Of a stretch of 64,000 nt of DNA, positions 19,002-23,160 are shown in pieces. Under the pieces are notes generated by a model. The model did not search any database. It worked only from the letters and a program-made list of their open reading frames with translations, and had not been told where the DNA came from. The stretch comes from Armatimonadetes bacterium Uphvl-Ar1 (GTDB taxonomy: Bacteria > Armatimonadota > Fimbriimonadia > Fimbriimonadales > Fimbriimonadaceae), in assembly GCA_002162075.1 (NCBI GenBank), contig CP021423.1:124001-188000 (forward strand), in the 5' to 3' direction. Position numbers and translations under genes: made by a program. The first letter of the stretch is position 1. Every line of letters starts with the position of its first letter.

Positions 19002-19519
19002 GTGAAGGAATTGAAAGTTGGGGCGGTCGAGGCGGTTTTTCGGAATGTCGAATTAGATTTTGGTTTGGTGGTGGAGAGTTTTGAGATTCGGGGGAGCGGG
19101 GCAACGGTTGATTTGAAGAGTGGGGGGTTGCAGCTGCCGATTCCGGGGAATGCGAAGGCGGTTGTGACGGAGGGAGCGATTCAGGCGCTACTGACGAAGC
19201 AGGCTCCGGCGCAGGTTCGGGATTTTTCGGTGCAGGTATCGGGGGTCTTATTTATGTTGAGGCGAAAGCTCAGGTTGTGGTGACGATTCCGGTGAAGGCC
19301 GTTTGTACGATTGAAATTCGGGATGGAAAGCGGTTGGAAGTGGTTTTGAAGCAGGCGGATGTTTTGGGTGGGGCGGCAAAGAATTTGATTGAGAGTCAGC
19401 TGGATAAGATCAATCCGATTTTCGATGTTGCGGATTTGCCGATTGAAGTGAATTTGATGAGTGTGGAGGCGGATGGGGGTCGGGTAGTTGTTTTGGGTGA
19501 AGTGGTTGGGGTTAAGTGA
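19002..19519 (+). CDS. DUF2993/LmeA-like lipid-binding protein (frame broken at 19241-19245)
   Basis: Two overlapping frames cover one gene. The first (19002-19283) has V-V-E-S-F-E-I-R-G-S-G-A-T-V-D-L and L-T-K-Q-A-P-A-Q-V; the second (to 19519) has V-V-V-T-I-P-V-K-A-V and the end V-V-G-V-K. One extra G in the run at 19241-19245 joins them through S-G-G-L-I-Y-V-E-A-K-A-Q. The repaired 172-residue protein resembles small DUF2993 proteins that bind phospholipid. There is no signal peptide. Its last 18 nt are repeated at the far end of the Rhs island, so it once probably overlapped the amidohydrolase start directly. Confidence 0.6.
19502..19519 (+). repeat. 18-bp direct repeat, left end of the Rhs island
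   Basis: GTGGTTGGGGTTAAGTGA, the end of the DUF2993-like gene including its stop, is identical to 21956-21973. Confidence 0.85.
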
Positions 19520-19599
19520 GGAGTGTCAATCGAGGGGTTGTGGAGGGTGGTTAAGTAAAATTTCTCGTTTTCATCCAAGCGAATTTGCTGTAGACTTCT

Positions 19600-19798
19600 C
19601 GTAAAGTTCTCCCAGATCAACCTTTGTTTGGGATGGGAGTGAGTACATCGGAGAAGTATAGAGATGGAGATGAAGGTTCAGTATTTCAGTGTTGATAGTG
19701 AGGTGATTGCGACGAGCGGTGCTTCTGGTGATTTGCAAGGTATTATTACTGATGGGGGTAAGTGGCAATGGGAAACCGTGCAGGTTGCTTTTCACTGA
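19600..19798 (+). pseudogene. Rhs C-terminal fragment 1 (degraded)
   Basis: The stretch S-T-F-V-W-D-G-S-E-Y-I-G-E-V ends at a stop near 19661. The similarity resumes in another frame at 19664 with Y-F-S-V-D-S-E-V-I-A-T-S-G-A-S-G, up to TGA 19796-19798. Both pieces match fragment 2 (F-V-W-D-G-S-E-Y and F-S-V-D-G-E-V-I-A-E-S-G-A-S-G) in DNA as well. It is a remnant of the end of an Rhs core; the final 25 residues differ from fragment 2 and may be part of a different tip. Confidence 0.6.
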
Positions 19799-20502
19799 AT
19801 TTTGGTTTAGCGTTCATGCTAGCACTGTTAACTCAAGTTTCGTGCACATCTCAAAGTGATCCCCAGTTGCCATCAAGAGGTGCCGAGCCTCATGATAATG
19901 AGAGGTCGCTTTCCGGACTGAAAAAGCGGGCTGAGCTAGGTGATCGGTTTATTGAAAGTGACATAATTTGGCTTTCAACTCAGCTCTTTAGTAGTGACTT
20001 CTACTCACAGCATCAATCGACCGAAATAATAGCCAAAGCGGTTAAGAGTGGAGCTCTCTCTCCCAAAAAAGGAAGATCGCTTCTCTACCGGGCAATAGAA
20101 GGTAACTCGGGAGACAGTATGTGGCGTTTGATTTTGTCTTTGAATTATATGGAGTGTTGGGGGTTTCGTGCGGATCAACTCTCGTCACAATCGCAAGAAA
20201 TATCTCAGTTGAGGGATCATTCAAATAAAGAATCATCGAAGTTCCTTACTGCAGTAGAGAGGGAACTGATTTTAAATGCATTGGAATCGAAAGAAAGTAA
20301 TGATAGTCTTAGTTGTTTTCTGATATTGATGTCTAAGGACAGTCTTCCGGAATCGGATCAAGACTTTGTCCAGCAGTTTCTTGCGAAAGCGAAAAAGCAG
20401 GGTGGTCAAATTGAAAGAGAATTCTGGAGAGAGAGTGAAGGCTTGATTAGGCATTTGCTTATTAAACAAATAAACGCGCAGCCGAACGGAGGAAAAGTTT
20501 GA
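19768..20502 (+). CDS. Secreted or lipid-anchored protein, possibly Rhs-associated
   Basis: The product (244 residues from ATG 19768) has an N-terminal signal peptide (L-A-F-M-L-A-L-L-T-Q-V-S-C); the Cys could be a weak lipobox. The remainder is polar and mainly helical, with no recognised domain. Its codons lack the G/T bias of the surrounding chromosome. It lies between two Rhs fragments, the place where immunity genes usually sit in polymorphic toxin loci, and the next Rhs piece begins directly at its stop. An immunity function is therefore possible but unsupported by similarity. A GTG at 19762 is an alternative start. Confidence 0.6.
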   Translation: MGNRAGCFSLNFGLAFMLALLTQVSCTSQSDPQLPSRGAEPHDNERSLSGLKKRAELGDRFIESDIIWLSTQLFSSDFYSQHQSTEIIAKAVKSGALSPKKGRSLLYRAIEGNSGDSMWRLILSLNYMECWGFRADQLSSQSQEISQLRDHSNKESSKFLTAVERELILNALESKESNDSLSCFLILMSKDSLPESDQDFVQQFLAKAKKQGGQIEREFWRESEGLIRHLLIKQINAQPNGGKV

Positions 20503-21001
20503 ATGCTTCGAGATGGTTTGAAGCGTCGTGAGGTCTCTCAGACGGGTTGTGACGACCTTTGTTTGGGATGGGAGTGAGTATTTTGCAGGATCGAAGCTAA
20601 TGGGTGTAACGAACGACTTCAGTGTTGATGGTGAGGTGATTGCGGAGAGCGGTGCTTCTGGTTACTTGTCGTATCACCGTGACAATTTAGGTTCTGTTTG
20701 CGCGACGCTGGATAGCAGTGGAGCTTTGGTTCATCAGTACCAGTACAAGCCTTTTGGTGAGCTGTGGAGTGCGAGCGGTGCTGGGTGGTATATGGATTGC
20801 ATAAATTCGATTTGGAACAAAAATGGGAATGATATTGATGAAGCTATTTGTGGTTGCCATGAAGCGTTTGAGGATTCAATCTCCAATAGCAATGGAATTC
20901 AGCACTGTGCGGCAGACATAGCATGTGGTTTCATTGGAGGTGTTGCCGAAATATATTGCTCCGATTACTACAAGAAGAAAAGGGGTAGGCAAATTAAGTG
21001 A
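20503..21001 (+). pseudogene. Rhs C-terminal fragment 2 with a distinct tip
   Basis: From ATG 20503 the frame reads L-R-D-G-L-K-R-R-E-V-S-Q-T-G, then needs removal of one T near 20546 to continue as T-T-F-V-W-D-G-S-E-Y. From GTG 20528 an uninterrupted 157-residue frame carries the Rhs-core end H-R-D-N-L-G-S-V-C-A-T-L and Y-Q-Y-K-P-F-G-E-L, then a variable tip of about 70 residues with six Cys and a basic end (K-K-K-R-G-R). In Rhs proteins the tip after the core is the toxin. The missing front of the protein means it cannot act alone; it may be a silent cassette. Confidence 0.65.
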
Positions 21002-21315
21002 ACCGGTTGGTGAAGATTGGTTTCTTGCTCTTCTTCATTTTCATATGTGGGAGCTTGTCGTTTTTAGGTTTCGTTAGTTTGGATAATGGGCCACCAGTCC
21101 CTCTGATGATTGCAACAATTTTTTTCATTGGTGCATTAGTTATTTTATTTTATCGACATCAAGAAAGATGGCTGCCGTTCCTCCTAGTTGGCATAGCATT
21201 AGTTTCGCTAGTCGACTGGAGTGATGTATTCAGTCTAAGATCGATCGGGTTAATTTTACCTCTTTTAGGCTTTTTCCCATATGACAATAGTGGCGAAGAA
21301 CAAACATCCCATTGA
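20998..21315 (+). CDS. Small membrane protein, candidate immunity partner of the Rhs tip
   Basis: The 105-residue product has three hydrophobic segments (I-G-F-L-L-F-F-I-F-I-C, L-M-I-A-T-I-F-F-I-G-A-L-V-I-L-F and W-L-P-F-L-L-V-G-I-A-L-V) and a short acidic C-terminus. It starts at a GTG that overlaps the TGA of the Rhs tip (GTGA), a sign of translational coupling. In Rhs and CDI loci the gene directly after the tip encodes immunity, so that is the leading idea. No sequence family is recognised. Confidence 0.55.
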   Translation: MNRLVKIGFLLFFIFICGSLSFLGFVSLDNGPPVPLMIATIFFIGALVILFYRHQERWLPFLLVGIALVSLVDWSDVFSLRSIGLILPLLGFFPYDNSGEEQTSH

Positions 21316-21413
21316 CGTCAACAAACTATCGGAGTGCCTGATCGCTGCTTATTAAGCACCATTGAGTTGCAGTATTTTAGCCCGTTGCTGTTTGTTCGAG
21401 AGACTTTCACTTA

Positions 21414-21666
21414 AGATGCGGTCGGGAATATTACAGAGAACACGGTGACGGGTTCGGTGACTTATGCTTATGACCTTGCTTCTCAGATGACTTTGATGAT
21501 GTTCCATGGTGCGCGGATCACTCAGGTTTATGATAACAATGGAAATCTGACGGGGATTCTTCGGACGAGCCTTGCTCCAGTGACAATGAATTATGACGAG
21601 GAAAACCGTGAGACTCTATACAGAGGAGTAGGTCGGCAACTTTCAGAGATTGAGATATTTTGTTGA
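21414..21666 (+). pseudogene. Rhs YD-repeat fragment 3
   Basis: The frame after the TAA at 21411-21413 reads D-A-V-G-N-I-T-E-N-T-V and later T-Y-A-Y-D-L-A-S-Q-M and V-Y-D-N-N-G-N-L-T-G, all typical YD repeats of Rhs cores, and ends at 21666 after G-V-G-R-Q-L. Both ends of the parent protein are missing. In an intact gene this part would precede the C-terminal core seen in fragments 1 and 2, so the pieces are out of order. Confidence 0.65.
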
Positions 21667-21955: not shown

Positions 21956-21973
21956 GTGGTTGGGGTTAAGTGA
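21956..21973 (+). repeat. 18-bp direct repeat, right end of the Rhs island
   Basis: This copy is identical to 19502-19519. Its last base is the A of the amidohydrolase ATG. Confidence 0.85.
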
Positions 21974-23160
21974 TGCTTATGTTGCGACAACGGATTGATG
22001 GTGATGCGGGGTATTTGGCGGAATTGCGGCATGACATCCATCGTTGTCCGGAATTGATGTATGAGGAGGTTCAGACGAGTGCCCGCGTTCAGGCGGAGCT
22101 AGCGAAAGTGGGGGTTGAGTTCAAGGCGGGTCTGGCGAAGGGGACGGGGGTTTTGGGGTATTTGCCAGCGACGAAGCCGGGTGGGAAGACGGTGGCTTTG
22201 CGGGCGGATATGGATGCTTTGCCGATCCACGAGGAGACGGGGTTGCCCTATGCGAGTGAGACTCCGGGCAAGATGCATGCTTGCGGGCATGATGGTCACA
22301 CGGCGATTTTGGTGGGGGTTGCGCGGGCTCTAGCGCAGGAGGAAGAACGACCGAACAACGTTTTGTTTGTGTTCCAGCCAGCAGAAGAAGGTGGGGCAGG
22401 GGGCCGAGCAATGTGTGAGGATGGGGTTTTGGATGGGAAGGTTTTAGGTGGAAAGGCAGATGTGATTTATGGGTTGCACGGTTGGCCGGAGGAGCCGGTG
22501 GGTGAGGTCCGGTGGAAGGTCGGGCCGATGATGGCGGCGACGAACCAGTTCATTATTCAGATTCATGGAAAGGGGGGACACGCAGCGGCTCCGCACACGA
22601 CGGCTGACCCGGTGGTGGCGGCGGCTCAAATTGTCACCGCTTTGCAATCGATTGGGAGTCGAAATGTTGATCCACTTGATTCGATTGTGGTGAGTGTGAC
22701 GAGTGTGCATGGGGGGACGGCATTTAATGTCATTCCGGAAATGGTGGAGTTGCGGGGGACGATGCGGACGTTGCTACCGGAGACCCGAGTTTTGGGTCGA
22801 GAGCGGATTTTTGCGATTAGTGAAGGGATTGGGTCGGCGATGGGGTGCCGGGTTGAGATTGAGTGGCGGGAGGGGTATCCGGTGACGGCTAACGAGGAGG
22901 TGGCGACGGGGGATGTCCGGCGGGTGGCATCGGCGGTGGTTGGGGAGGGGAAGGTCGCTGAGCTCTCAGCTCCGGTGATGGGGGGCGAGGATTTTAGTTT
23001 TTATGGAGAAAGGATCCCGGCGGCTTTTTACTTTGTGGGATTACGACCGGAAGGGATGGACGAAATGCCGAGTGTTCACACGCCTCGGTTTGACTTCAAT
23101 GATGCGGTCATTCCGGACTGTGTGGAGATTATGAGTCGGCTGGCTTTGGAGCGGGTTTAG
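21973..23160 (+). CDS. M20 family amidohydrolase (hippurate / N-acyl amino acid hydrolase type)
   Basis: The 395-residue enzyme should cleave the amide bond of N-acyl amino acids with a two-metal centre. It shows R-H-D-I-H-R-C-P-E-L near residue 20, A-D-M-D-A-L-P-I, the metal ligands in M-H-A-C-G-H-D-G-H-T, F-Q-P-A-E-E-G-G-A-G-G and the late ligand region M-G-G-E-D-F-S-F-Y. The lid domain follows residue 185. Length and motifs match the M20D subfamily. ATG 21973 is preferred to GTG 21970. The 18-bp repeat ends at its start, so its original upstream neighbour was probably the DUF2993-like gene and its present promoter is within the Rhs island or absent. Confidence 0.93.
   Translation: MLMLRQRIDGDAGYLAELRHDIHRCPELMYEEVQTSARVQAELAKVGVEFKAGLAKGTGVLGYLPATKPGGKTVALRADMDALPIHEETGLPYASETPGKMHACGHDGHTAILVGVARALAQEEERPNNVLFVFQPAEEGGAGGRAMCEDGVLDGKVLGGKADVIYGLHGWPEEPVGEVRWKVGPMMAATNQFIIQIHGKGGHAAAPHTTADPVVAAAQIVTALQSIGSRNVDPLDSIVVSVTSVHGGTAFNVIPEMVELRGTMRTLLPETRVLGRERIFAISEGIGSAMGCRVEIEWREGYPVTANEEVATGDVRRVASAVVGEGKVAELSAPVMGGEDFSFYGERIPAAFYFVGLRPEGMDEMPSVHTPRFDFNDAVIPDCVEIMSRLALERV

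What the first reader, a model, noticed from the sequence alone, without database searches (positions are those of the whole stretch)
19600..21666. Out-of-order Rhs tips with candidate immunity genes
Two copies of the Rhs core end with different tips, each followed or overlapped by a small secreted or membrane gene, then a third piece that belongs further upstream in an intact Rhs. This fits a store of silent toxin tips with retained immunity genes. The tip ending at 21001 and the three-helix protein overlapping it look like a toxin-immunity pair.
Basis: inference. Interest (0 to 1): 0.55.

Follow-up and report, generated by a model that had tools for sequence, protein, structure and literature searches.

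The report
Decayed depot of split Rhs toxins
This stretch holds worn remains of bacterial weapon genes beside protective-looking genes that are still open, and its relatives point to a weapon made from two separate genes, a shell and small exchangeable toxin genes, instead of the usual single long gene.

Summary
Window 19600-21666 has two truncated Rhs core copies with different ends, each overlapping an open ORF for a small secreted or membrane protein, then a piece of Rhs body that lies upstream in relatives. No intact rhs gene with this core DNA was found in the genome; five other matches (86-95% identity) lie in two other orphan loci. A sister species has a different, unbroken core-tip ORF plus lipoprotein-like ORF at the same site. 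"Store of silent tips" is half right. Both tips here are truncated, so this is a graveyard whose immunity-like ORFs stayed open. And the subfamily is not silent fragments: in Fimbriimonadaceae (Armatimonadota) this Rhs gene is split at one conserved point. A body ORF ends ...WDGxxYL...stop; a separate core-tip ORF starts there with its own ATG (68 of 79 non-fused cores), usually with a Shine-Dalgarno-like site. Free-standing copies keep the ATG in 31 of 37 and the site in 19 of 37. It works like TcB with several TcC subunits, but the split point differs, tips are cysteine-rich, and the neighbouring genes look envelope-located. Docking, cleavage, toxicity and immunity are inferred, not shown. 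The split is a new variant of a known kind; the window copy is ordinary decay.

The parts
19568..19596 (+). promoter-like -35 TTTTCA (19568-19573) and -10 TAGACT (19591-19596); a TG(C/T)TGTAGACT stretch is shared with the leaders of L022 (two) and of the sister species' depot
   Evidence: consensus match only, no evidence of function
19620..19798 (+). f1: remnant of an Rhs core-tip gene; GGAGAAG at 19650-19656 and ATG at 19664, 44-aa ORF to the stop at 19796-19798
19762..20502 (+). 246-aa lipoprotein-like ORF (GTG 19762; possible ATG 19768), candidate immunity gene
   Evidence: no family above cut-off; no relative among 85 family genomes; lipobox read by eye
20512..20784 (+). f2: proximal half of an Rhs core, 93% identical to cores at 1758.8 and 198.3 kb; CAGGA then ATG at 20600 kept; one T more than in the aligned copies joins the upstream frame to the core frame
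20785..21001 (+). 71-aa cysteine-rich (8.5%) tip remnant behind the truncated core
   Evidence: no relative among 85 family genomes
20998..21315 (+). 105-aa three-helix membrane protein, 4-nt overlap with the tip; candidate immunity gene
   Evidence: no family above cut-off; no relative among 85 family genomes
21415..21666 (+). f3: remnant of the Rhs body (YD repeats) that lies before the core in relatives

Best explanation
The stretch is a decayed, body-less depot of a split Rhs toxin system. In the unbroken system one gene encodes the YD-repeat shell (body) and ends at a conserved ...WDGxxYL... stop. A small second gene starts right there with its own ATG and encodes about 125 aa of closing core followed by a variable, usually cysteine-rich tip; a further ORF usually follows or overlaps its end. 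Extra core-tip genes stand behind the body or elsewhere as free-standing genes. Most likely each core-tip protein docks on a body, closes the shell, frees its tip inside and is delivered to rivals, where the tip attacks the cell envelope; membrane or lipoprotein partners protect the maker. In the window, deletions removed the distal core and most of both tips while the two immunity-like ORFs stayed open, so its present use is at most immunity. Shown: gene split, start codons, arrays, decay, content change at the site. Inferred: docking, cleavage, delivery, toxicity, immunity.
For: Decay: f1 and f2 stop short of the distal core, and other remnants in the genome break at other points. Site: sister G006 (93-95% DNA identity up to the end of the LmeA-like gene) has at the same place a different core-tip ORF (partial core, 223-aa tip) and a lipoprotein-like ORF with 4-nt overlap. 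Split: ATG at -18/-15 in 68 of 79 non-fused cores against a mean of 2.0 and a maximum of 11 at 45 shifted positions; start lies -1 to +6 nt from the body stop in 39 of 41, in all three relative frames (9, 12, 20); 15 of 41 body frames are 977-1266 aa, one of them cut by the stretch end. Shine-Dalgarno-like 4-mers in 55 of 78 (36 of 41 body-adjacent, 19 of 37 free-standing) against 161 of 1500 random codons and 27 of 159 internal ATGs. 28 of 28 cores in named records are split, 26 with ATG. Core dN/dS median 0.23 over 72 pairs. Tips 7.2% Cys against 0.0% in cores and 0.3% in bodies; HExxH in 15 of 76 tips, shuffled mean 0.24, maximum 4. Next ORF N-terminally hydrophobic in 47 of 72 against 16 of 52 window genes.
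Against: No protein, RNA or toxicity data. No split-type body with an unbroken frame was found in this genome, so its core-tip genes lack a visible partner. 7 of 86 cores are fused, and the tree forces at least four split/fused changes. Half of the free-standing copies have no clear Shine-Dalgarno-like site (18 of 37), and promoter enrichment is weak (7 of 34 against 5%). 20 of 76 tips scanned in Pfam gave nothing over cut-off, so 'toxin' rests on position and motifs. The dN/dS pairs are mostly copies within one genome, and gene conversion may shape them. The next ORF was picked as the longest one near the tip end and may be wrong in some cases.
Confidence: 0.68

Rival explanations
1. Classical silent orphan rhs-CT modules: displaced tip fragments without translation signals, kept for recombination into a full rhs gene and for their immunity genes.
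For: Published CDI and Rhs orphans are of this kind (passages); shared core DNA between loci; the other Rhs of this genome (L020) has such trailing copies.
Against: Conserved own ATG and Shine-Dalgarno-like site in the subfamily, both still visible in the two window remnants; no full rhs gene with this core in the genome; the window tips lack the distal core.
Confidence: 0.2
2. Pure junk: fragments with no present function, the small ORFs open by chance or by recent decay.
For: Truncation of both tips, body piece out of order, no relatives of the small proteins in 85 genomes, low G+C (44% against 53%).
Against: Two open ORFs of 246 and 105 aa with secretion or membrane features, the second with the 4-nt overlap of unbroken modules. 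Selection on them could not be measured.
Confidence: 0.25
3. The split is an artefact (sequencing indels) or a programmed frameshift that still yields one long Rhs protein.
For: Stop and start overlap by one nt in 18 of 41; another gene of this assembly (19002-19519) is in two frames.
Against: Same position in 25 genomes (24 without one doubtful case) and in named records; three relative frames, 9 of 41 in the same frame behind a stop; start codon at a fixed distance.
Confidence: 0.04

Closest known systems
Orphan rhs-CT/rhsI and cdiA-CT/cdiI modules (PMC3150448 and PMC3967940, passages read)
   Same: Tandem displaced tips with shared upstream core DNA and an immunity gene behind each; immunity can outlive toxin use.
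   Different: Those orphans generally lack translation initiation signals; here the core-tip copies are ORFs with own ATG and often a Shine-Dalgarno-like site, and the principal copy is split from the body too.
Tc (ABC) toxin: TcB plus several TcC subunits, e.g. YenB with YenC1-YenC3 (PMC11067744, passages read)
   Same: RHS shell from two polypeptides; toxin on the C-terminal subunit; several toxin subunits per shell gene; the core aligns to the end of the TcC shell.
   Different: TcC brings a conserved N-terminal domain of about 680 residues, the subunit here only about 125; tips are Cys-rich and followed by ORFs that look like immunity genes; a TcA was not looked for.
Orphan immunity arrays of Vibrio cholerae T6SS (PMC5361080, listing and start of abstract only)
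   Same: By its title, effector displacement leaves immunity genes behind.
   Different: Other effectors and delivery; here truncated tips are still attached.

Membership tests
Rhs / YD-repeat proteins | YD/RHS repeats and RHS-associated core | tested here: met
   f3 RHS_repeat 21.0 bits against a cut-off of 22; unbroken relatives L022 and L023 hit Rhs_assc_core at 32.4 and 29.9 bits against 32.5, the window ORF gives no hit; 93% DNA identity ties the window copy to L022/L023; the core profile finds solved Rhs chains. Borderline by curated cut-offs.
Classical orphan rhs-CT module | core DNA shared with a main rhs gene of the same genome | tested here: not met
   matches only orphan loci of this genome
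Classical orphan rhs-CT module | lacks translation initiation signals | tested here: not met
   ATG in 68 of 78 and Shine-Dalgarno-like site in 55 of 78 modules; ATG and such sites kept at 19664 and 20600 in the window
Classical orphan rhs-CT module | cognate immunity gene directly downstream | tested here: inconclusive
   ORFs with the right place and overlap; function not tested
Tc toxin TcB/TcC | RHS shell encoded by two genes, toxin on the second | tested here: met
   gene level only, in relatives; complex not tested
Tc toxin TcB/TcC | C subunit with a long shell part (about 680 residues) before the toxin | tested here: not met
   about 125 aa of core; TccC2 chain aligns only at 551-660
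Tc toxin TcB/TcC | TcA translocator | not tested
   not searched

The most novel reading that the evidence does not exclude
Fimbriimonadaceae and some other Armatimonadota run a two-part Rhs weapon: a shared shell protein and a rack of separately made, interchangeable closing-core/toxin proteins, mostly cysteine-rich and envelope-attacking, each with a membrane or lipoprotein immunity protein. Array members can be loaded without recombination, and worn depots such as this one persist as immunity banks.
Probability: 0.45. Interest if true: 0.75.

Novelty: new variant of a known kind. Interest (0 to 1): 0.58.

Why it matters
Orphan Rhs tips are usually seen as unexpressed spare parts that need recombination. 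A subfamily in which the tip is its own gene could load different toxins onto one shell at the same time, which makes the use of Rhs arrays directly testable, and it adds a second way of splitting an RHS shell besides TcB/TcC. Seven searches of the paper library listed no paper whose title or abstract start describes it; only four of the listed papers were opened, at passages, and one phylum may simply be little studied.

Tried and rejected
Insertion with target-site duplication: an 18-nt direct repeat flanks the island (19502-19519 and 21956-21973), but the right-hand sequence also stands before the peptidase gene in G006, where that gene lies on another contig behind a different gene. No empty site could be shown; not claimed.

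Programmed frameshift at the split: rejected, body and core-tip ORF stand in all three relative frames.

Families for tip, lipoprotein and three-helix protein: nothing above cut-off in Pfam or NCBIfam. The LNT_N hit of the three-helix protein (20.2 bits, cut-off 27.1) is taken as a hydrophobicity match. A scan of named genomes with the window's core-tip ORF found no relative.

Own promoters of free-standing copies: weak enrichment only. Glycine zippers: 22 of 76 tips, a number that shuffles also reach, not claimed.

Sampling: the 53 stretches analysed were chosen from matches to this genome's core. Left out were several hits on short contigs and weak matches in frames above 1000 aa (for example G025, G049, G058, G012:C2), so the split:fused ratio is for this subfamily, not for all Rhs. 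By eye two of the 79 non-fused cores (L167 offset 9667, L175 offset 10859) are in-frame joins to a short body remnant. One copy present in two stretches was dropped for the count of 78.

Changes: fifteen body frames are now called open frames, not whole genes; 'always' and 'none' were narrowed; the internal-ATG control and the free-standing numbers were added. Odds: best explanation 0.68.

Full report
What is in the window. The genome is one 2.985-Mb contig; the window is C1:124001-188000. Between an LmeA-like gene (19002-19519, in two frames here) and an M20 peptidase gene (21970-23160) lie three Rhs pieces and two small ORFs. f1 (19620-19798) is a short core copy. f2 (20512-20784) is the proximal half of a core and runs into a 71-aa tip ending at 21001. 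f3 (21415-21666) is a piece of YD-repeat body. A 246-aa lipoprotein-like ORF overlaps f1, and a 105-aa three-helix ORF overlaps f2's tip by 4 nt. Both remnants keep a start codon with a Shine-Dalgarno-like stretch (GGAGAAG before ATG 19664; CAGGA before ATG 20600). The island has 44% G+C, the window 53%.

Copies in the genome. f2 DNA matches five other places at 86-95% identity, all at 197-199 kb (L022) or 1756-1759 kb (L023); the next matches have E 0.037 or more. By protein, 12 places match, the window included. L022 and L023 each hold one unbroken core-tip ORF (318 and 343 aa) and several remnants, which break at different points, as deletions would give. f2 has one T more than the four copies read at TATTTGCAGG, which joins the upstream frame to the core frame. 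No open body frame with this core was found in the genome. The split-type body found at 1957-1961 kb is interrupted. The 1322-aa Rhs at 2.82 Mb is of another, fused type; it is followed by further core copies whose frames (three looked at) show no start at a common place.

Site history. In sister species G006 the DNA matches at 93-95% to the end of the LmeA-like gene. Directly behind stands a different module: partial core, 223-aa tip, 134-aa lipoprotein-like ORF with 4-nt overlap, then the start of another core copy at the contig end. So the content of this place has changed between the two species. The peptidase gene of G006 lies on another contig behind another gene.

The split. In this subfamily the core frame mostly opens just before the core. 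The YD frame ends at ...WDGxxYL... stop, and the core ORF starts 15 or 18 nt before a conserved Tyr. Of 86 cores with both ends in 53 fetched stretches, 69 have ATG, 7 GTG or TTG, 3 no start nearby, and 7 lie in long frames and count as fused. ATG at -18/-15: 68 of 79; 45 shifted positions gave a mean of 2.0 and a maximum of 11. The 79 come from 25 genomes, one of them (G028) doubtful. Of 78 modules (one duplicate dropped) 41 have a recognisable body end; start minus stop is -1 nt in 18 and -1 to +6 in 39; relative frames are 0 (9), 1 (12) and 2 (20); 15 body frames, from 13 genomes, are 977-1266 aa, one cut by the stretch end. Shine-Dalgarno-like 4-mers precede 36 of 41 body-adjacent and 19 of 37 free-standing starts, against 161 of 1500 random codons and 27 of 159 internal ATGs; ATG is kept in 37 of 41 and 31 of 37. 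Named records (Fimbriimonadaceae and other Armatimonadetes MAGs, Armatimonadetes bacterium Uphvl-Ar2, a Chthonomonas bin) give 28 of 28 split, 26 with ATG. These are partly the same contigs as the unnamed ones (L208 and L209 have the contig lengths of G034 C9 and C13), which also places this genome's family in Fimbriimonadaceae, Armatimonadota. In the phylum 138 of 291 genomes match the core profile at E 1e-15; every match printed (a capped list of the best) lies in a frame of at most 520 aa. Cores look constrained: dN/dS median 0.23, 4 of 72 pairs above 0.5; the pairs are mostly within genomes and not independent. On a 93-row tree with few columns, split and fused are clustered (7 changes, shuffled mean 13.3) but not single clades (at least 4 changes).

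Tips and neighbours. Tips have a median of 182 aa (78) and 7.2% Cys (77 tips over 60 aa), against 0.0% in 86 cores, 0.3% in 15 bodies and 0.9% in 52 window genes. Five fused members have 10.3, 9.9, 7.2, 5.2 and 2.5%; the L020 type has none. HExxH occurs in 15 of 76 tips (shuffled mean 0.24, maximum 4) and a C-HD-C motif in 5 of 76 (mean 0.16, maximum 2); that these recall zinc proteases and phospholipase A2 is my recollection. Pfam on 20 of the 76 tips gave nothing over cut-off, only a phospholipase A2-like hit (17.0 bits, cut-off 23.9) and a NAGPA hit (20.3, cut-off 25). 47 of 72 next ORFs have an N-terminal hydrophobic stretch, against 16 of 52 window genes (p 2.4e-4). Envelope-acting toxins with envelope-located immunity proteins would fit; this is inference.

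Relation to known systems. The core profile aligns to the end of the shell of Rhs effectors, TccC2 and TcdB2-TccC3, up to the DP before the toxin; its role in self-cleavage is recalled. Published CDI and Rhs orphans generally lack translation initiation signals, while orphan immunity can be expressed (passages of PMC3150448, and PMC3967940). YenB packages three TcC proteins encoded at distinct loci, with a conserved N-terminal domain of about 680 residues (passages of PMC11067744). Other papers were seen only in listings, apart from passages of PMC12419801, whose main text does not name Armatimonadota.

Verdict. The window itself is a worn depot: tips cut down, small ORFs open. The larger result is the conserved gene split, which makes tips of this subfamily separate, translatable genes. 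Docking, self-cleavage, delivery, toxicity and immunity remain to be shown.

Noticed in passing
window 19002-19519: LmeA-like gene (25.8 bits, cut-off 27.3) in two frames here, one 173-aa ORF in sister species G006: real decay or a sequence error.
   Followed up: partly
window 19502-19519 and 21956-21973: 18-nt direct repeat flanking the Rhs island.
   Followed up: partly
L022 4725-4846 and 6099-6219: 122 nt with the end of the gene next to the 198-kb depot repeated at 97% inside the depot, as if the depot grew by a duplication.
   Followed up: no
L022 5075-5473 and 7687-8097: Two ORFs that read like ankyrin-repeat proteins with N-terminal secretion signals lie in the 198-kb depot; the second matches Pfam ankyrin models, the first was only read by eye.
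   Followed up: no
L116 and L019 (C1:1945000-1964500): Array of five split core-tip ORFs of a second subfamily behind an interrupted body; copies keep the GAAGGAGGAGAAGTGATG leader, in two of them without the body end.
   Followed up: partly
L020 6439-12032: Fused 1322-aa Rhs with three further core copies (93%, 81% and 70-81% identical DNA) and Cys-free tips: a classical-looking array in the same genome.
   Followed up: partly
76 tips of the fetched stretches: Most tip families are unknown to Pfam although HExxH and C-HD-C motifs recur.
   Followed up: partly
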